Assembly (NCBI GenBank): GCA_016839345.1
Contig: JAEOUL010000208.1
Location: 1 to 23,855, forward strand
Direction of reading: 5' to 3'
Length of the DNA stretch: 23,855 bases
Source: Candidatus Thorarchaeota archaeon
Lineage (GTDB): Archaea > Asgardarchaeota > Thorarchaeia > Thorarchaeales > Thorarchaeaceae
The translations under genes and the position numbers were made by a program. A model generated the notes under the pieces. The model was not told the origin of the DNA, ran no database searches, and saw only the letters and a list, made by a program, of their open reading frames with translations. Below, in pieces: positions 9,339 through 23,855 of this stretch. Every line of letters starts with the position of its first letter. The first letter of the stretch is position 1.

Positions 9339-9420
9339 AAAAAATAACGTCGGTGAGCTGGCGACTGCGGAATACTCCAAGTCACCAGCATGTTCCGACT
9401 TCGACTCGGAAAGGTTGTTA
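9339..9420 (-). ncRNA. Candidate small structured RNA or structured 5' leader
   Basis: Read on the minus strand, this 82-base stretch has two strong hairpins and a T-run. The first hairpin pairs 9406-9411 with 9393-9398 (TTCCGA arms, seven-base loop). The second has ten-base arms, 9380-9389 with 9357-9366, with one G-U pair and a possible inner three-pair stem (GGA/TCC). A run of six T residues follows at 9344-9339, the archaeal termination signal. A TATA box at 9440-9448 is at the right distance for a start near 9420. Promoter, folded body and T-run together look like an independent transcript. The alternative is a regulatory leader of the MFS gene 70 bp further on. I cannot match it to a known RNA family. 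Confidence 0.5.
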
Positions 9421-9439
9421 GTAATTTCGAGATAAACCC

Positions 9440-16389: not shown

Positions 16390-17691
16390 TCAATTCACAT
16401 GCAGGTATCTATCAATCTCCCACCCAGTGACCTTTGAGGAACCTGGGTTTCCAGTTTTGTTGACGTAGTCTTTCCATTCTTTTCTTCGCATTGCAACGAG
16501 AGTATCTACTACAGAATTTCCTAGAACATCTCTCATTGTTTGACTGTGTTCCAAACTGTAGAGAGCTCTCTCTAATGAGTCGGGGAGTGATCTGGTTGAA
16601 GAGGTTGACTCGTAGAGGTCTTTGTCAGTTGGTCTAGGTGGTTCGATCTTTCTGGTTATACCATCCAAACCCGCTGCTAACATTGTAGCTATAACGAGGT
16701 GTGGTGAAGACGTTGCATCAGGACACCGGAGCTCAATTCTTGCAGCTTTATCAGACCCGTTGAAATGAGGCACACGAATCATGGTGCTACGGTTTCTATA
16801 CCCCCATGCAATCCTTGTGGGTGCTTCAAAACCGGGAACCAGTCTCTTGTATGAGTTGACTGTTGGGGCTAAAATAGCAGCCAAAGTAGTTGCATGTTCA
16901 AGAAGGCCTCCTATGTAATATGTCGCGAGAGGCGAGATAGTGCTGCTTGTTTCAGAGGCGAAGAGGTTCCGTGACCCATCAAGACCCCAGATGCTCTGAT
17001 GGAGATGCATTCCTGAACCATTCTGGTGTGGGAATGGTTTTGGCATAAATGTAGCAACCCGTCCTCGTCGATTTGCGGTTTCTGAGATTACAGTGCGTGC
17101 TAACATAATGTTGTCCGCAGCTACTTCTGCCGGCACATATTGGAGTCCAATCTCTTGTTGACCATTTGCTACTTCGTGATGGTGTGACGTGGTTGGAATT
17201 TGGATGGCGTTCAATGTCCTGATGACTTCCCGTCTTAGGTCCAATGAACCGTCTAGAGGTTGTGAGGAGAAATATCCCCCTTGATCAAGGGGAATCACAG
17301 TGCCATCAGTGAGTCTTTTCACAGTGAAAAATTCTAGTTCACTTCCCACCATTAATTGAAATCCCATTTCCGCTGCCTTGGTTACAACTTTTCTTAAAAT
17401 GTTCCTCGGGTCTCTGGGATGCGGTTGTCTTGAAATCTCATGAATACTGCAGACAATATATGCTGCAGAGGGATCCCATGGCTGTTGAGTTGGGGTGGCG
17501 CACCTTGGCAGAAGGAGGAGATCACTTTCATTTACCGCAGCATATCCGGGGACAGAGGAACCATCAAAGACAAACCCATTCTTAACGACTTCCTCTAGTC
17601 TGTCCATACCGACCTCTATGCTTCTTGTGTGTCCCAAAAGGTCGGTGAAGATTAGTCTAAGGAATTCGGCGTGCCCATGTTCTTTGCTCAT
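16390..17691 (-). CDS. glnA: Glutamine synthetase, type I
   Basis: This enzyme makes glutamine from glutamate, ammonia and ATP as a cytoplasmic dodecamer. The 433 aa fit the short type I (alpha) form. Signature stretches are FDGSSVPGY (near 43), SELEFF with two metal-ligand Glu (near 118), GQQEIG, the ATP-site NGSGMHLHQS (near 225), NSYKRLVPGFEAP and RIELRCPDATSSPHL (near 318). The usual NPYL is SPHL here, a modest deviation. The N-terminal beta-grasp domain is short. ATG 17691 is preceded by GAGGT eight bases away; an in-frame TTG directly upstream is less likely. A long leader with hairpins lies upstream, and an Lrp-type regulator is divergent. A gamma-glutamyl-amide ligase paralogue is a possible alternative. 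Confidence 0.92.
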   Translation of the reverse strand: MSKEHGHAEFLRLIFTDLLGHTRSIEVGMDRLEEVVKNGFVFDGSSVPGYAAVNESDLLLLPRCATPTQQPWDPSAAYIVCSIHEISRQPHPRDPRNILRKVVTKAAEMGFQLMVGSELEFFTVKRLTDGTVIPLDQGGYFSSQPLDGSLDLRREVIRTLNAIQIPTTSHHHEVANGQQEIGLQYVPAEVAADNIMLARTVISETANRRGRVATFMPKPFPHQNGSGMHLHQSIWGLDGSRNLFASETSSTISPLATYYIGGLLEHATTLAAILAPTVNSYKRLVPGFEAPTRIAWGYRNRSTMIRVPHFNGSDKAARIELRCPDATSSPHLVIATMLAAGLDGITRKIEPPRPTDKDLYESTSSTRSLPDSLERALYSLEHSQTMRDVLGNSVVDTLVAMRRKEWKDYVNKTGNPGSSKVTGWEIDRYLHVN

Positions 17692-17733
17692 CAATGGCTA
17701 CCTCTAGGGGTTTCAGTTAATGGTTTGAGAGAG

Positions 17734-17903: not shown

Positions 17904-18422
17904 ATGGCGGAAAATATTACCGTTTCAAAGATTGACGAAACTGATCTCAAGCTCCTCGATCTACTACAGAAAGATAGCAAAATGAAAAATGCTGAGCTAG
18001 CTAAACAAGTTGGAAGAAGTATCTCTCGAGTCCATACTCGTGTACAATCCCTACAAGCTCGTGAGATCATCGAGAAATTCACAGTAGTTCTAGATCCCAA
18101 GAAACTAGACAGGGAAACCTTGGCATTTATCTTGGTCACAGTCCGATATCGCGTACCAGGAAAGAAGGATGTTTTGTCACAACGCGAGTTTTGTCAGACG
18201 ATTGCAAAACATCCCCTGGTTCAGGGAGTGCATGTCTTGAGTGGTGAGTATGATGTACTTCTCAAAGTTCGGACAAAGAATATTGATGCAATGAATCGCT
18301 TCATAGTTGATTATTTGCGAGAACTCCCGGAAGTTGATAAAACTCTGACAATGTTCGCAATGGAATCATATTATGACTCACTGGAGCTTCGCGAGCTGGG
18401 TTCAGCATTTCACTCTAAGTAA
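17904..18422 (+). CDS. Lrp/AsnC family transcriptional regulator
   Basis: This 172-aa DNA-binding regulator of the Lrp/AsnC (feast/famine) type has a winged-helix domain at about residues 10-60 (DETDLKLLDLLQKDSKMKN, then AELAKQVGRSISRVHTRVQSLQ). A RAM ligand-binding domain follows at about 75-150 (VHVLSGEYDVLLKVRTKNIDAMNRFIVD). Such proteins form dimers and octamers and often sense amino acids. It diverges from glutamine synthetase, which suggests control of that gene and of itself. Two matching palindromes, one upstream and one over its own first codons, support autoregulation. No ribosome site is obvious before ATG 17904, so the message may be nearly leaderless. The extended tail after residue 155 is a helix not always present in Lrp. 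Confidence 0.93.
   Translation: MAENITVSKIDETDLKLLDLLQKDSKMKNAELAKQVGRSISRVHTRVQSLQAREIIEKFTVVLDPKKLDRETLAFILVTVRYRVPGKKDVLSQREFCQTIAKHPLVQGVHVLSGEYDVLLKVRTKNIDAMNRFIVDYLRELPEVDKTLTMFAMESYYDSLELRELGSAFHSK
17908..17922. promoter_or_regulatory. Operator-like palindrome 2 overlapping the Lrp start
   Basis: CGGAAAATATTACCG, two mismatches from palindrome 1, begins one base after the Lrp start codon. Occupancy would hinder transcription of the Lrp gene itself. Confidence 0.45.
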
Positions 18423-18486: not shown

Positions 18487-18783
18487 TTATCTCGAGATCG
18501 ACCGCATCTGGAGACCTACTATTATGCGAAGCCGCGCAATCTCAGCTTCCACTTCCCGGATTCTCTCAATATTTGCATGATAAAGCGGCTTACGCATGTC
18601 CATCAAGTTGGGCACCTTGTGAAGTAGTCTTTGTCTAACGAGCTTCTTCAACGCAAAAGTTACAGTTCTTAGCGGCATCTCTGACTCTCTTGAGAGGTCT
18701 CTTGGAGCCATCGGTCCGTGTTCAGTGATATGATCAAGCACCAGGAGAGCACTTCTCGGGAGGTCATTCGGTGTGAACATCAT
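18487..18783 (-). CDS. Small winged-helix (MarR/ArsR-like) DNA-binding protein
   Basis: This single-domain winged-helix regulator has about 98 residues. The helix-turn-helix lies at about 12-55 (ALLVLDHITEHGPMAPRDLSR, ESEMPLRTVTFALKKLVRQ), followed by a wing (LLHKVPNLMDMRKPLYHAN). A C-terminal charged helix (IERIREVEAEIARLRIIVG) may be a dimerising coiled coil. The layout resembles small archaeal MarR-like proteins. Two ATGs (18783, 18780) follow a GTG at 18795; I chose 18783 since no ribosome site separates them. It is divergent from the double-winged-helix regulator operon across a gap full of inverted repeats, and convergent with the Lrp gene. A role in controlling that shared promoter region is likely but inferred. 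Confidence 0.83.
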   Translation of the reverse strand: MMFTPNDLPRSALLVLDHITEHGPMAPRDLSRESEMPLRTVTFALKKLVRQRLLHKVPNLMDMRKPLYHANIERIREVEAEIARLRIIVGLQMRSISR

Positions 18784-18811
18784 TTTGAATATCACAATCC
18801 AGTTACTCTAT

Positions 18812-18839
18812 CGGCAATAATATTAAGTATATTTTGCCG
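18812..18839. promoter_or_regulatory. Inverted repeat CGGCAA...TTGCCG in divergent promoter region
   Basis: Six-base arms CGGCAA and TTGCCG are separated by sixteen A/T-rich bases. A third CGGCAA lies at 18864-18869. The repeated half-sites suggest a regulator-binding cluster between two divergent regulator genes. Confidence 0.45.
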
Positions 18840-18858: not shown

Positions 18859-18896
18859 ACTTACGGCAATTAATAAAGCTTAAGTTCACCGTAAGT
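18859..18896. promoter_or_regulatory. Inverted repeat ACTTACGG...CCGTAAGT
   Basis: Perfect eight-base arms flank 22 bases, ending about ten bases before the TATA box of the double-winged-helix regulator operon. A protein bound here could repress or activate that promoter. Confidence 0.5.
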
Positions 18897-18941: not shown

Positions 18942-20051
18942 GTGACGAAAAAAAGACCCCGTCTTCAGGATTCAGTCCTCCTAGATGCAATCACGCGACT
19001 TGGAGGAAAGGTCACTGCCTCAGAACTTGGTCAAATCTTGGGACATCCTGATAGAACAATAAGGTACAGAATTCGGCGACTCAGAGAGAAGGGATACTTA
19101 GGACGAGTCTGGCCTCAGACCCTTGATACGAAGTTGGGCCTGGGTGATGCTTCAGTCATACTGGACATGTCTAAAGAGTATAGACACCTCCCCCGTGGAT
19201 TTCTTGATTGTTTTCCGAATCTTTACGTTAACTACGCCGCATTCGGACGGTTCAATGGATACTTAGCTGCGGCTGGCTATCCTATCGAGAATCCCAATAT
19301 CTTGGACCGCATGTTACGAGCAATGAAGCAAATGGGTATAATCAGAAACTCCTATATTCTCAGAACACTTGACTTCCTCTCTATTGCAGGCGACCTGAGT
19401 AAGTACCATCCTACTTCAGGATGGATGTGGGACTGGAGAGAGTGGGTTGAACAGTCGAAACAGACACTCAAGACTGGAGAACGATTTCCTCTGGAGTTTG
19501 ATCAGAGTCCCACCCCGTATGACTATGATCACAAAGACATAGAAATCATAGCCGAACTGAAGATGAATAGCGCAATCACACACAAAGAACTGAGTGAGAT
19601 TATCGACCTATCGGAAACTCAGATCGGAGTTAGGATTCGTCGTCTCCAAGAGGCAAACATCTTGAGAGGGTATGCTTGGTTGACAGAACAGACGCCTGCG
19701 AATATTGTGTTGTATACTTACTTTGAGCTCGAAGAACCCGACCATCCTGCTCTCACATGCTTTCTTCATCTGCCCTTCCGTAAAGAACTCGTCATAGAGT
19801 CAACAGACAAGTTCCTAGTGAGATTGACAATGAACTCGAGTGATGTTGCTGGTTACTGTAGGGGTCTGGAAACAATCCGATCGTATTTTAGATCATACTT
19901 CATTCAGTCCTGTGTGAATATTAGAGTGGTACCTGGTGGAATGCGTAGGTTCTATCATTTGCATAATGAGTCCACTGGTCGGTGGGAGATGCCTGTAGAT
20001 GAGTATATCCAGGACTTGGAGAAGTATATTGAGAAGTACAACAACAAGTGA
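18942..20051 (+). CDS. Double winged-helix Lrp-like transcriptional regulator, paralogue 1
   Basis: This 369-aa protein is built from two copies of an Lrp-like unit. The first winged helix is at about 10-55 (VLLDAITRLGGKVTASELGQ, ILGHPDRTIRYRIRRLREKG). It is followed by an alpha/beta region (VNYAAFGRFNGYLAAAGYP, then ILDRMLRAMKQMGII). The second winged helix is at about 197-243 (DIEIIAELKMNSAITHKELS, EIIDLSETQIGVRIRRLQEA). A second alpha/beta region (KFLVRLTMNSSDVAGYCRGL) follows. The protein ends with STGRWEMPVDEYIQDLEKYI. It should bind DNA, with the alpha/beta parts sensing a ligand. The GTG start has GGAG five bases upstream. An adjacent paralogue starts 16 bp later. Target and ligand are unknown; self-control through the upstream repeats is likely. 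Confidence 0.85.
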   Translation: MTKKRPRLQDSVLLDAITRLGGKVTASELGQILGHPDRTIRYRIRRLREKGYLGRVWPQTLDTKLGLGDASVILDMSKEYRHLPRGFLDCFPNLYVNYAAFGRFNGYLAAAGYPIENPNILDRMLRAMKQMGIIRNSYILRTLDFLSIAGDLSKYHPTSGWMWDWREWVEQSKQTLKTGERFPLEFDQSPTPYDYDHKDIEIIAELKMNSAITHKELSEIIDLSETQIGVRIRRLQEANILRGYAWLTEQTPANIVLYTYFELEEPDHPALTCFLHLPFRKELVIESTDKFLVRLTMNSSDVAGYCRGLETIRSYFRSYFIQSCVNIRVVPGGMRRFYHLHNESTGRWEMPVDEYIQDLEKYIEKYNNK

Positions 20052-20067
20052 TGGAGAAACAGAGAAA

Positions 20068-21168
20068 GTGTCGAAACGAAAACGGAAACTCACAGATGCA
20101 AAGCTTCTGGAAGCCCTCACTGAACTTGGTGGTACAGGCAAGGCTCCAGAGATAGGAAAGATGCTTGGGTTTTCCGAGAGGACAATCAGATACAGACTTC
20201 AACGACTGAAAGAGAAAGGACATCTCTATCATGAATGGCCTCAGACACTTGACGTTAAACTAGGGTTATGTGAAACTGGCCTCTTTTTAGAACCTAGTGA
20301 GGAGTATCGTGATATTCCCCGTGATTTCCTCCTATGCTTCAAGAACTTCTATGTCAACTATGCGACCTACGGACGATATAATGGTCATTTCGCAGCAGGT
20401 GGCTATCCACGTGATGAACCTCAACTGATTGACAAGATGACCCAAACCCTGAAGAAGATGAACATCATCAAAGACTGCTTTAGATTCGATACGATCGATT
20501 ATATACCACTCTCAGCAGATTTGTCAAGATACAGTCCAACAACGGGATGGGACTGGGATTGGAGGGAATGGCTCGAGCAATCTGAGAAGGCAATCAAAGA
20601 TGGTGAACCTTCAGGGTTGGATATTGTCTGGGACCATGGTACTATGGATTATGACCACAAAGACATCGCGATTGTAGCAGAGATAAAGGCCTATGGATAT
20701 ATCTCGCCCAAGCAAATAAGCAAGCAAGTAGGCTTATCTGACACTCAGGTCAGGGCTAGAATTAGACGGCTAATGGATGAGAAAGTGCTTCTGGGATCTG
20801 TATGGCTGATTCCACCCACACCTGATTCGATGATACTTTATACATTTGTTGAACTCGATCCTTCTGATGATTCCGCATTGAGCTGCTATAGGTATCTCCC
20901 ATTTCGAAAGGAAGTGTTTGTTGATAAACCAAACAAGTACTGCATCAAGATTGTGATGAACTCACGTGACTTGGTGGGTTACCTGAAGGCGTTTGAAACA
21001 CTCCGCATCTACTTCGACTCATACTTCTTCCAAACAACCTTGAGTGAAATTGTGACTCGTAGGACAATATATGACTACTACCATCTCCACAAGGAATCCA
21101 CAGGTCGGTGGGAGATGCCAGTTGAGGATTATATTCAAAATCTGGAAAAATTCATGGAAGACTATTAG
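20068..21168 (+). CDS. Double winged-helix Lrp-like transcriptional regulator, paralogue 2
   Basis: This 366-aa protein is a tandem paralogue of the preceding gene and is colinear along its whole length. Shared stretches include RTIRYR..RL.EKG, WPQTLD.KLGL, DYDHKDI and ESTGRWEMPV. It has the same two winged helices (about 10-55 and 195-240) and two alpha/beta parts. I chose GTG 20068, not an upstream ATG at 19999, for two reasons. It gives an N-terminus (MSKRKRKLTDAKLLEAL) that lines up residue for residue with paralogue 1, and a GGAG lies eleven bases before it. The extra upstream residues would only read through the end of paralogue 1 in another frame. It is in the middle of the operon, followed after 18 bp by the trimodular enzyme. 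The two may form a heteromer. Confidence 0.85.
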   Translation: MSKRKRKLTDAKLLEALTELGGTGKAPEIGKMLGFSERTIRYRLQRLKEKGHLYHEWPQTLDVKLGLCETGLFLEPSEEYRDIPRDFLLCFKNFYVNYATYGRYNGHFAAGGYPRDEPQLIDKMTQTLKKMNIIKDCFRFDTIDYIPLSADLSRYSPTTGWDWDWREWLEQSEKAIKDGEPSGLDIVWDHGTMDYDHKDIAIVAEIKAYGYISPKQISKQVGLSDTQVRARIRRLMDEKVLLGSVWLIPPTPDSMILYTFVELDPSDDSALSCYRYLPFRKEVFVDKPNKYCIKIVMNSRDLVGYLKAFETLRIYFDSYFFQTTLSEIVTRRTIYDYYHLHKESTGRWEMPVEDYIQNLEKFMEDY

Positions 21169-21186
21169 ATAAGAACGCTTACATTT

Positions 21187-23855
21187 ATGGCATTGATACA
21201 TCTAAAGTCATCATCACGTGGTGTAATCCCTTTGGACGCTCGAGACCAAAAACGACCTAACTTCGATGTAGAATTTGCTAGCGACATTGTCAAGTCACTG
21301 TATAGTCTATCTGGTAGTTTCAGAGAGTTGCCAAGTGAAAGGGATCAGAATTTCCATTTAGTCACCGAAACCGGTGAAGAGTTTGTCCTAAAGATTTCAG
21401 CACCTTCTGAAAAGCGTGAAACTTTGGAATTCCAAAACAGTGCCATGAATCATATTGCAAGTAGAAGTGAGTTGCCAATATCATCTATAGTCCAAAAGAC
21501 AGTATCAGGTGAGAATATCACTCCAATAGAATCTCATGAAGGAGAATCGCACTTCGTGAGGTTGATTTCATTCCTTCCAGGAAGAGTAATGTCTTCTGTG
21601 AACCCGCATTCAGCGGATCTGCTTTTGGATTTTGGACAGTTTGTTGGTTCGATAAGTAGAAGTCTGGCTGATTTTGATCACCCCGCCACTCACAGGGATT
21701 TCTATTGGGATTTGAAGAAGGCGAGCTCCACAATTGAAAAGTTTAGAGAGCATATCTCCGACTCTGAAAAACAGGATCTTGTTGATTACTTTTTGAGTCT
21801 ATATCAAAGACTAGTTGTACCACGAATGGAAGAACTGCTGACAAGCGTTATACACAATGATATCAACGATGATAATGTTGTCATCAATAATCCTCATGAT
21901 GATACTCGTTCTTTTGGAATACTTGATTTTGGAGATATGGTGTATTCTCATACAATCAACGAACTGGCAATCGCGATTGCCTATGCAATGCTCGATAAAA
22001 TCGACCCAATAGGTGCCGCACAGAAAATCATAGCAGGATATCAATCAGTGTTTCCAATGACTGAACTGGAACTTGAGGTTCTTTTCCCACTTGCCTGTAC
22101 ACGACTTGCAACAAGCGTATCGATTTCCGCATATCAGCAGAAACTTGAACCTGACAACGAATACCTGATAGTTAGTGAGGAAAGAGCGTGGGATGTATTA
22201 TCTCAGCTGGCAAAAATCCATCCTCGATTCGCGTACTACTGTTTTCGTGAAGCTGCAGGTATGGAACCATGCCCCGATTCAGTCCGCGTCACTAAGTGGC
22301 TCATAAAGAACTCTCAGTATCTAGCAAGTCCTATTGGTACTCCACTTGATGCAACAAACAGTGTTGTAATAGATCTAAGTGTAGGAAGTACTGATGTTGA
22401 CTCTCCCCATCAACTAGCTGACCATCAACAATTTGGAGATCTCATATCAAGAAAACTCACAGCTGCTGGAGTCAAAATTGGAGTAGGTCGATACAATGAA
22501 CCACGCTTGACATATACTGAGGACCAGTATTTGGAACCCGGAAATGAGGTTAAGACAATTCATCTTGCTATAGATCTGTTTGTTGAAAACGGTACTCCTG
22601 TGGTTTCAGTCTATGATGGTGTCATCCATAGTTTTCAAGATAATTCAGCACCTCTCGATAATGGCCCTACCATTGTAGTAGAATACAAGACAACTTCTCA
22701 CGGTCCTGCCTTCTACATTCTTTACAGTCATCTAACTCGTGACTCATTGGATGGTCTAGCAATTGGACAGATTGTGAAGAAGGGAGAAAGGATTGGAAGA
22801 GTGGGCAAGTACCCGGACAATGGTGGGTGGCCACCACATCTTCACTTCCAGCTCATTGTGGATATGATGGACCATATGGGCGACATATCTGGAGTTGCCC
22901 CTCCGTCTAAGCATGATATCTGGTTGAGTATATGTCCGGATCCCAACTTGATACTTCAGATTCCTGAGTCACTCTTTCCAGAGCCAGATTTGTCGAAGGG
23001 GGAACTCATCCAGCTTCGTGGTGAACACATTGGTCGGTCTCTTGGAGTATCATATAAAAAACCCCTAACAATCGTTCGAGGTTTCATGCAGTATCTCTAT
23101 GATGAGAATGGTCAACAATTTCTCGACATCAGGAACAATGTTCCACATGTTGGTCATAGCAACCCACGAATTGTAAGAGCAATGACCCAACAAGCCATGG
23201 TTCTGAACACAAACACGCGCTACCTGCACCAGAATCTGGTGCGGTATGCTAAGCGGCTGACTGCCAAGCTACCAAAAGAACTCAGTGTCTGTTTCTTTGT
23301 CAACAGTGGAAGTGAAGCAAACGAGCTCGCCCTGAGACTGGCTAGAACTCACACCAAGCGAAAGGACATCATTGCTATCGATGGAGCCTATCATGGGAAC
23401 ACTGCTGAGCTTGTGAATATCAGTTCATACAAACACGATGGACCTGGAGGAGAGGGGGCTCCGCCGCATGTGCACGTAGTAAGGATGCCTGACACATATC
23501 GTGGTGAACATAAGGGATCTGAAGCAGGAAAGAAGTATGCACAGGATGTGTATGAGGCTACCAAGAAATCAGAAGGAGTCGCAGCATTCATCTTCGAACC
23601 ACTGATGGGATGCGGGGGCCAGATTATTTTTCCCGATAGCTACCTCAAGGAAGCCTTCAAGCATGTTCATAATGAAGGTGGAGTCTGTATTGCGGATGAG
23701 GTACAGGTCGGTTTTGGAAGGATGGGTGATTATTTCTGGGGATTTGAAACCCAGGGAGTAGTCCCTGATATTGTAACGATGGGCAAACCGATTGGTAATG
23801 GTCATCCCATTGGTGCTGTGGTCACGACACAAGATATAGCAAATTCATTCACGAC
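21187..23855 (+). CDS. Trimodular APH-kinase / M23 peptidase / class III aminotransferase fusion, cut by right edge
   Basis: An open frame of 889 codons from ATG 21187 runs off the right edge. An in-frame TAG at 21166-21168 (the paralogue 2 stop) fixes it as a separate gene. Three domains follow each other. An aminoglycoside-phosphotransferase-fold kinase spans about 25-300, with H223, D225 and N230 in HNDINDDN and D247 in DFGD. An M23 metallopeptidase-type domain spans about 440-575, with its zinc ligands H459/D463 (HLAID) and the HLH motif 551-553. A class III PLP aminotransferase domain starts near 615 (NNVPHVGHSNP, VNSGSEANE, ADEVQVGFGRMG, PLP lysine K867). Known relatives are bacterial fusions of about 1000 aa related to hydroxylysine kinase and phosphoethanolamine or phosphohydroxylysine phospho-lyase. 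Substrate is unknown. No ribosome site is obvious. Confidence 0.93.
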   Translation, partial: MALIHLKSSSRGVIPLDARDQKRPNFDVEFASDIVKSLYSLSGSFRELPSERDQNFHLVTETGEEFVLKISAPSEKRETLEFQNSAMNHIASRSELPISSIVQKTVSGENITPIESHEGESHFVRLISFLPGRVMSSVNPHSADLLLDFGQFVGSISRSLADFDHPATHRDFYWDLKKASSTIEKFREHISDSEKQDLVDYFLSLYQRLVVPRMEELLTSVIHNDINDDNVVINNPHDDTRSFGILDFGDMVYSHTINELAIAIAYAMLDKIDPIGAAQKIIAGYQSVFPMTELELEVLFPLACTRLATSVSISAYQQKLEPDNEYLIVSEERAWDVLSQLAKIHPRFAYYCFREAAGMEPCPDSVRVTKWLIKNSQYLASPIGTPLDATNSVVIDLSVGSTDVDSPHQLADHQQFGDLISRKLTAAGVKIGVGRYNEPRLTYTEDQYLEPGNEVKTIHLAIDLFVENGTPVVSVYDGVIHSFQDNSAPLDNGPTIVVEYKTTSHGPAFYILYSHLTRDSLDGLAIGQIVKKGERIGRVGKYPDNGGWPPHLHFQLIVDMMDHMGDISGVAPPSKHDIWLSICPDPNLILQIPESLFPEPDLSKGELIQLRGEHIGRSLGVSYKKPLTIVRGFMQYLYDENGQQFLDIRNNVPHVGHSNPRIVRAMTQQAMVLNTNTRYLHQNLVRYAKRLTAKLPKELSVCFFVNSGSEANELALRLARTHTKRKDIIAIDGAYHGNTAELVNISSYKHDGPGGEGAPPHVHVVRMPDTYRGEHKGSEAGKKYAQDVYEATKKSEGVAAFIFEPLMGCGGQIIFPDSYLKEAFKHVHNEGGVCIADEVQVGFGRMGDYFWGFETQGVVPDIVTMGKPIGNGHPIGAVVTTQDIANSFT

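What the first reader, a model, noticed from the sequence alone, without database searches (positions are those of the whole stretch)
18942..23855. Operon of two paralogous double-winged-helix regulators and a kinase/peptidase/aminotransferase fusion
Three genes are 16 and 18 bp apart on one strand. The first two are tandem paralogues made of two Lrp-like units each. The third is a trimodular enzyme with intact kinase, M23 and PLP motifs. Phosphorylation of an amino alcohol or hydroxyamino acid followed by PLP-dependent phospho-lysis is the known chemistry of the related human kinase and phospho-lyases. A dedicated, duplicated regulator pair co-transcribed with this enzyme suggests a ligand-controlled degradation module. 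I know of no described archaeal system of this form.
Basis: partly seen in the sequence, partly recalled or inferred. Interest (0 to 1): 0.7.

Follow-up and report, generated by a model that had tools for sequence, protein, structure and literature searches.

The report
Amine-degrading fusion enzyme with tandem regulators
In uncultured Thorarchaeota, a three-part enzyme of a type already known from bacteria, which probably phosphorylates a small amino alcohol and then splits off ammonia and phosphate, sits beside unusual double-unit DNA-binding regulators whose likely shared DNA target site could be traced to several places in these genomes.

Summary
The genes are real, but the picture changes. 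REG1 (18942-20051) and REG2 (20068-21168), each two fused Lrp units, are 16 bp apart. The third gene is cut by the window end; its ATG at 21187 lies in a conserved, mostly out-of-frame block, so the likely start is TTG 21232, giving a 63-bp gap with a probable promoter of its own. The enzyme belongs to a known bacterial family (PRK06148: kinase, M23, class-III PLP domain), and the PLP domain is closest to human ethanolamine-phosphate phospho-lyase. Nine of nine Thorarchaeota loci found with a REG profile beside the enzyme carry one REG directly upstream; REG2 is an extra copy. REG is not next to the enzyme in 20 other Asgard loci (one with too little upstream DNA to judge). New here: a palindrome, CGGCAA-N16-TTGCCG, upstream of REG genes, also of distant paralogues elsewhere (13 of 30 at 2 or fewer mismatches; 0 of 120 other upstream regions). 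It looks like an autoregulatory operator. No copy lies at the enzyme's own promoter, so control of the enzyme by REG is unproved. Substrate and M23 role stay open.

The parts
18942..20051 (+). REG1: tandem-Lrp regulator (two wHTH + RAM-like units), GTG start
20068..21168 (+). REG2: paralogue of REG1, GTG start, 16 bp downstream of REG1
21232..23855 (+).
21319..22044 (+). APH-type kinase domain (Pfam APH, residues 45-286 counted from ATG 21187)
22558..22857 (+). Peptidase_M23 domain (residues 458-557 counted from ATG 21187); HLAID, YSHL and HLHF motifs present
23062..23850 (+). Class-III PLP domain (residues 626-888 counted from ATG 21187), nearest to ethanolamine-phosphate phospho-lyase; cut by the window end
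18812..18839 (+). Probable operator site 1, CGGCAA-N16-TTGCCG, 0 mismatches
18864..18891 (+). Probable operator site 2, 2 mismatches, spans the TATA-like TTAATAAA at 18870
21178..21190 (+). Conserved block CTTACATTTATGG upstream of the enzyme, probable own core promoter
18487..18795 (-). MARR: small MarR-like wHTH gene divergent from REG1
17904..18422 (+). Ordinary Lrp/AsnC regulator, neighbour in part of the loci
16390..17694 (-). Glutamine synthetase, neighbour in part of the loci

Best explanation
The enzyme is an amine-catabolic fusion. Its kinase domain phosphorylates the hydroxyl of a small hydroxy-amine or hydroxy-amino acid, and its PLP domain then removes phosphate and ammonia to leave an aldehyde; phosphoethanolamine is the first candidate, 5-phosphohydroxylysine the second. 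Shown: domain order, catalytic residues, nearest relatives. Inferred: reaction, substrate and cytosolic place. The M23 domain is an accessory, perhaps a peptidase that frees the amine from a peptide or conjugate (inferred). REG1 and REG2 are single-chain, pseudo-dimeric Lrp regulators. They most likely bind CGGCAA-N16-TTGCCG in the MARR/REG1 divergent promoter and repress their own promoter, since site 2 covers a TATA-like box; the enzyme is then made by read-through, from its own promoter, or both. Shown: conservation and placement of the site. Inferred: which protein binds, the direction of control and the ligand.
For: PRK06148 cut-off 1128 is passed by full-length Thorarchaeota relatives L005 (1206.9) and P0056 (1187.6); the truncated window copy scores 976.7. 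PLP domain of L005: 6tor human ethanolamine-phosphate phospho-lyase 453.7 bits, 5g4i phospho-lyase 317.5, next 200.1; Foldseek ranks the same two entries first. K54, D209, N214, D232 and K856 in 80 of 80 Asgard-side and 9 of 9 bacterial rows, some rows redundant, many unnamed. One REG directly upstream of the enzyme with MARR divergent in 9 of 9 loci. The REG profile finds 19 distinct PDB sequences at E 0.01, all named as transcriptional regulators, NirDL not among them. Palindrome at 1 or fewer mismatches in 8 of 10 enzyme-linked REG loci (the loci it was read from) and in 9 of 30 distant REG loci; 13 of 30 at 2 or fewer; 0 of 120 other upstream regions at 2 or fewer. It occurs in several branches of a quick REG tree, including a six-locus group without detected MARR. 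R38, T39, R41, R43 of the first HTH kept in 36-37 of 37 family members.
Against: No exact half-site CGGCAA/TTGCCG within 200 bp upstream of the enzyme in 17 loci scanned (upstream of L061 partly masked), nor in the window, L001-L005, L007, L008 (motif positions), so REG control of the enzyme is not shown. The enzyme stands without an adjacent REG in 20 further Asgard loci fetched (L074 had only 185 bp upstream). 17 of 30 distant REG loci lack the palindrome at 2 or fewer mismatches, among them loci that have MARR. 12 of 29 exact matches phylum-wide are not at REG loci as far as looked (9 examined, 3 not); the control pattern gives 8. In the window alone the palindrome is not beyond chance at 2 mismatches (5 of 100 shuffles). 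M23 residues are incomplete in 9 of 80 Asgard-side rows, and the domain is absent in one Asgard and one bacterial fusion. Nothing fixes the substrate.
Confidence: 0.6

Rival explanations
1. MARR, not REG, binds the palindrome; REG is a partner or is unrelated to the site.
For: MARR is divergent from REG at the enzyme loci (9 of 9) and was detected in 15 of the 31 distant REG loci fetched, plus a partial hit in L111. In G007 a 1-mismatch palindrome also lies between two MARR copies.
Against: Six REG loci (L120-L123, L128, L129) carry perfect sites, in pairs 47 bp apart, with no MARR detected. Several MARR-bearing loci lack the site at 2 mismatches.
Confidence: 0.25
2. REG1/REG2 are not regulators but NirDL/AhbAB-like siroheme decarboxylases, which are also two fused Lrp units.
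Against: By sequence the profile hits DNA-binding regulators and not NirDL at E 0.01. No His or Cys reaches 60% in any column of 37 family members, while the title of the NirDL structure paper names two essential histidines (title seen in the reference list of PMC10548856). A conserved DNA palindrome accompanies part of the family.
Confidence: 0.05
3. The PLP domain is an ordinary class-III transaminase and the kinase acts on something else.
For: Database names say aminotransferase; the fold is that of class-III transaminases.
Against: The two phospho-lyases lead every other PDB entry listed by over 100 bits. In the split or bimodular loci read (Burkholderia, Pseudomonas, Chelatococcus, Pannonibacter, Asgard L075) the kinase stays fused or adjacent while M23 is absent.
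Confidence: 0.1
4. REG and the enzyme are neighbours by descent only, without functional link.
For: Palindrome is absent at the enzyme promoter; distant REG genes have other neighbours; the enzyme also occurs without REG next door.
Against: Adjacency and orientation are kept in 9 of 9 loci although REG identity to REG1 falls to 37% (L009), and in the window the extra copy REG2 lies between REG1 and the enzyme.
Confidence: 0.3

Closest known systems
PRK06148 (NCBIfam NF004799) kinase-M23-class III fusions of alphaproteobacteria
   Same: Same three domains in the same order; full-length Thorarchaeota relatives pass the cut-off; some bacterial loci have an Lrp/AsnC gene next door (L078, L079) or a glutamine-synthetase-family gene (L011)
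   Different: Archaeal host; identity of L005 to 8 bacterial rows, medians 34.5% (kinase), 34.3% (M23), 51.3% (PLP); no tandem-Lrp REG in the bacterial loci read
Human ETNPPL (AGXT2L1) and A1RDF1 phospho-lyase
   Same: Best and second-best PDB matches of the PLP domain
   Different: Those chains are the PLP enzyme alone; here it is fused to a kinase and an M23 domain; substrate untested
Hydroxylysine kinase AGPHD1 (HYKK) plus PHYKPL
   Same: Kinase followed by phospho-lyase; Veiga-da-Cunha et al. 2012 took bi- and trifunctional bacterial fusions as the clue (recalled; paper not held)
   Different: No comparison with HYKK or PHYKPL sequences was made here
Lrp/AsnC regulators; BarR of Sulfolobus acidocaldarius
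   Same: wHTH + RAM-like unit; BarR sits beside and activates an aminotransferase gene and regulates itself; a second target is called glutamine synthase in the abstract and glutamate synthase (gltB) in the body (PMC4977709 passages)
   Different: REG is two units in one chain; no AsnC_trans_reg Pfam match for REG1 or REG2; the second BarR target is not shown to be the glutamine synthetase seen here
NirDL / fused AhbAB siroheme decarboxylase
   Different: 16% identity; no conserved histidine; sequence profile does not find it

Membership tests
PRK06148 fusion family | Full-length score above the curated cut-off of 1128 bits | tested here: met
   Relatives L005 1206.9 and P0056 1187.6; the window's own truncated copy 976.7, so shown through relatives only
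PRK06148 fusion family | Kinase, M23 and class-III PLP domains in that order | tested here: met
PLP phospho-lyase (ETNPPL group) | Closest to phospho-lyases rather than transaminases | tested here: met
PLP phospho-lyase (ETNPPL group) | Releases phosphate and ammonia from an O-phosphorylated amine | not testable with these tools
   needs enzyme assay
APH/HYKK-type small-molecule kinase | Catalytic Lys, HxD..N and DFG-like residues | tested here: met
   K54, D209, N214, D232 in 80 of 80 Asgard-side and 9 of 9 bacterial rows; H207 in 79 of 80 and 8 of 9; HND and DFGD present in the window
M23 peptidase | HxxxD and HxH zinc/catalytic residues | tested here: met
   present in the window; all five residues in 71 of 80 Asgard-side and 8 of 9 bacterial rows
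M23 peptidase | Peptide-bond cleavage | not testable with these tools
   needs assay
Lrp/AsnC regulators | wHTH plus RAM fold | tested here: met
   model of REG1 shows it twice; HTH_AsnC-type Pfam match in 23 of 23
Lrp/AsnC regulators | Pfam AsnC_trans_reg ligand domain match | tested here: inconclusive
   No match for REG1 (E up to 1) or REG2 (E up to 0.01); for the other members only the 25 commonest of 71 families are shown and it is not among them; the model does show that domain shape
NirDL siroheme decarboxylase | Two fused Lrp units | tested here: met
NirDL siroheme decarboxylase | Two essential histidines | tested here: not met
   No His at 60% or more in any column of 37 family members. 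The requirement is taken from a paper title and the equivalent positions were not mapped

The most novel reading that the evidence does not exclude
REG proteins are a new family of covalently dimerised Lrp regulators of Thorarchaeota and near relatives, reading their own palindrome CGGCAA-N16-TTGCCG. They were copied, often with a divergent MarR partner, to several loci, and at this one were recruited and duplicated to govern a one-chain line that frees an amine from peptides (M23), phosphorylates it and cleaves it to aldehyde, ammonia and phosphate, with glutamine synthetase nearby to take the ammonia.
Probability: 0.3. Interest if true: 0.7.

Novelty: new variant of a known kind. Interest (0 to 1): 0.5.

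Why it matters
It gives a concrete, testable regulator and DNA-site pair for uncultured Asgard archaea (I recall few such pairs; not searched exhaustively), next to an enzyme whose PLP domain is close to the human phosphoethanolamine-degrading enzyme. Kinase and lyase can be assayed directly, and the M23 domain in the middle of an archaeal metabolic enzyme is a small open question that one experiment could settle.

Tried and rejected
No whole genome is held for the window. Family search by NF004799.0 failed in the genome search, so protein queries were used. The kinase domain of L005 alone has no PDB relative at E 0.1 by sequence. The phosphodiesterase-like gene after the fusion has no PDB match at E 0.01 and only a weak partial PhnA hit (18.7 bits, cut-off 407.6), so a phosphonate or glycerophosphoethanolamine role is a lead only. 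Rfam found nothing in the window at gathering scores. Literature: in the listings of searches I saw no paper on the archaeal fusion, on PRK06148 function, or on a tandem-Lrp family with this palindrome; the one PRK06148 hit was seen only as a listing (a Mycoplasma secretome paper). The library lacks most subscription papers. Nearness of peptidase or gamma-glutamyl genes to the fusion was noticed but not tested. ETNPPL and PHYKPL specificity residues were not compared. Equal contig lengths (11 shared between the REG list and the fusion list; 5 shared by REG1-like and REG2-like proteins) were taken only as a hint of linkage. The age of the REG duplication is unsure: the careful tree puts REG2 in a 16-row clade apart from the single REG of L005, the quick tree puts the two together.
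Full report
What is there. Where homologues of REG1 and of the fusion carry an organism name, it is Thorarchaeota or another Asgard name (Promethearchaeota, Odinarchaeota, Hermodarchaeota) in the lists seen; the window is most likely Thorarchaeota. REG1 (18942-20051) and REG2 (20068-21168) follow each other with 16 bp between them, and REG2 has GGAG upstream of a GTG start. The third gene is cut by the window end.

Start of the third gene. Among 9 aligned enzyme-linked loci (window, L001-L008) the block is exact in the window, L002, L003, L004, L005 and L008, has 1 mismatch in L001 and 2 in L007, and is missing in L006. Its ATG is in frame with the enzyme in the window and out of frame in L001-L005 and L008. 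Of 17 other loci scanned upstream of the enzyme (L006 and L009 included), only REG-less L058 has it (1 mismatch, at -54); the other 16 have 4 or more mismatches at best, though several show another TATA-like stretch there by eye. The spacer between block and start looks unconserved in the alignment. I read the block as the enzyme's own core promoter in this sub-lineage and TTG 21232 as the start; both are inference. A 2-mismatch search of the whole window finds the block once with 0.59 expected, so its weight rests on the comparison between loci.

The enzyme. Pfam gives APH 45-286, Peptidase_M23 458-557 and Aminotran_3 from 626 (numbers from ATG 21187). The NCBIfam model PRK06148 covers it; full-length relatives pass the cut-off, the truncated window copy does not. 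Of the 120 homologues listed out of 2,692, all but P0152 carry the three Pfam domains by my reading of the list. In 227 Asgard genomes 56 had a match at E 1e-60 or better, but that tally includes stand-alone aminotransferases and is not a count of fusions. Bacterial fusions are common on rhizobial replicons: 86 of 308 plasmid records with a match cover 80% or more of the query.

Chemistry. With the L005 relative the best PDB matches are 6tor (453.7 bits) and 5g4i (317.5), then 200.1; with the truncated window protein 307.4, 211.4 and 116.1. ETNPPL converts phosphoethanolamine to acetaldehyde, ammonium and phosphate (PMC8233209, passages). Of the residues checked, K54, D209, N214, D232 and K856 are invariant in 80 Asgard-side and 9 bacterial rows; others vary a little (H207 79 of 80 and 8 of 9; R663 76 of 80; E60 more so in bacteria). 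The five M23 residues are complete in 71 of 80 and 8 of 9 (the 80 are 61 rows of alignment A2 and 19 fetched loci, some redundant, many unnamed). A bimodular form without M23 exists in the Asgard genome G051 (L075) and in Pannonibacter (L083), a degenerate M23 in L076, and separate kinase and lyase genes in Burkholderia, Pseudomonas and Chelatococcus. So kinase plus lyase is the core and M23 an accessory. That the M23 domain works as a peptidase here is inference.

Neighbourhood. In the nine Thorarchaeota loci that a REG profile found beside the fusion (L001-L009) the order is MARR reverse, one REG forward, fusion forward in 9 of 9; an Lrp gene is upstream in seven and glutamine synthetase in five, some contigs being short. 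L010, the tenth locus of that scan, has a 25% identical REG and no fusion. In 20 further Asgard fusion loci, chosen mostly for contig length, no REG stands next to the fusion; L074 has only 185 bp upstream, and L060 has a faint REG-like hit (19%, 5e-5) several kb downstream. Six of the 20 have an Lrp gene within about 3 kb upstream and four have glutamine synthetase. As annotated, bacterial fusions have an Lrp/AsnC gene next door in L078 and L079 and a glutamine-synthetase-family gene in L011, but neither in L012, L080 or L081 (the plasmid gene tables are incomplete); L055 and L056 show no Lrp by BLAST against my reference set. Downstream in several Thorarchaeota loci come a phosphodiesterase-like gene, a roughly 190-aa unknown and a threonine-dehydratase-like gene; the window ends before them.

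Palindrome. The MARR/REG1 spacer has CGGCAA-N16-TTGCCG at 18812-18839 and a degenerate second copy at 18864-18891 that spans the TATA-like TTAATAAA at 18870. In the window alone a 2-mismatch search expects 0.35 matches and finds 2, which 5 of 100 shuffles reach; the strength lies elsewhere. In about 300 bp upstream of REG genes the best site has 1 or fewer mismatches in 8 of 10 fusion-linked loci (not L001, L009), from which the motif was read, and in 9 of 30 distant REG loci with enough upstream DNA (31 fetched, one too short), which were not used to define it; at 2 or fewer it is 13 of 30, so 17 of 30 have none at that level. None of 120 upstream regions of other ORFs of 200 aa or more in the same loci reaches 2. 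Loci of one orthologous group are not independent, but sites fall in several branches of an unsupported quick tree. In 12 chosen genomes at up to 1 mismatch there are 27 matches against 10 for the reversed control pattern, and 16 of the 27 lie at REG/MARR loci. In 227 genomes there are 29 exact matches in 22 genomes, control 8; 17 of 29 lie at REG loci, nine were examined and show neither REG nor MARR, three were not examined. Pairs 47 bp apart occur in L120-L123, L128, L129 and L156. The first six have no MARR that my HMM detects, which favours REG as the binder.

Limits. No exact half-site lies within 200 bp upstream of the enzyme in the 17 loci (L061 partly masked), nor, from the motif positions, in the window, L001-L005, L007 and L008; a direct link from REG to the enzyme is not shown. 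Autoregulation is said to be usual for Lrp proteins (PMC2995911, passages). BarR, an archaeal Lrp beside an aminotransferase gene, is the nearest described arrangement I saw (PMC4977709, passages). I score the finding as a new variant of known kinds: a known enzyme type with a lineage-specific, double-unit regulator that has a traceable DNA site.

Noticed in passing
window 9340-9430, minus strand; L005 490-580, minus strand: Hairpin kept between the subtilisin-like and MFS genes, folding better than shuffles in both (z -4.2 and -6.0), ending in a U-rich run; no Rfam family. Could be a terminator or a small RNA.
   Followed up: partly
L110, L112-L119, L124-L126, L131, L132, L135: Divergent MARR-REG gene pairs recur at other loci with other neighbours (15 of 31 distant REG loci).
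   Followed up: partly
L005 14229-15383; L008 14251-15393; L074 3348-4869: Phosphodiesterase-like gene overlapping (L005) or directly following (L008) the fusion, then a threonine-dehydratase-like gene; L074 instead has both L-serine dehydratase subunits after the fusion.
   Followed up: partly
L071 11458-13065 (minus); L083 1533-3128: Gamma-glutamyltransferase gene about 100 bp upstream of the fusion in an Asgard genome and about 4.8 kb upstream in Pannonibacter; chance not tested.
   Followed up: no
L005 fusion, PLP domain: The archaeal PLP domain is 48% identical to human ETNPPL in the Foldseek alignment, near its median of 51% to 8 bacterial fusions; the origin of the eukaryotic enzyme would be worth a proper tree.
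   Followed up: no
L075 (G051), L076 (G045): Asgard fusions without M23 (L075) or with a degenerate M23 domain (L076).
   Followed up: partly
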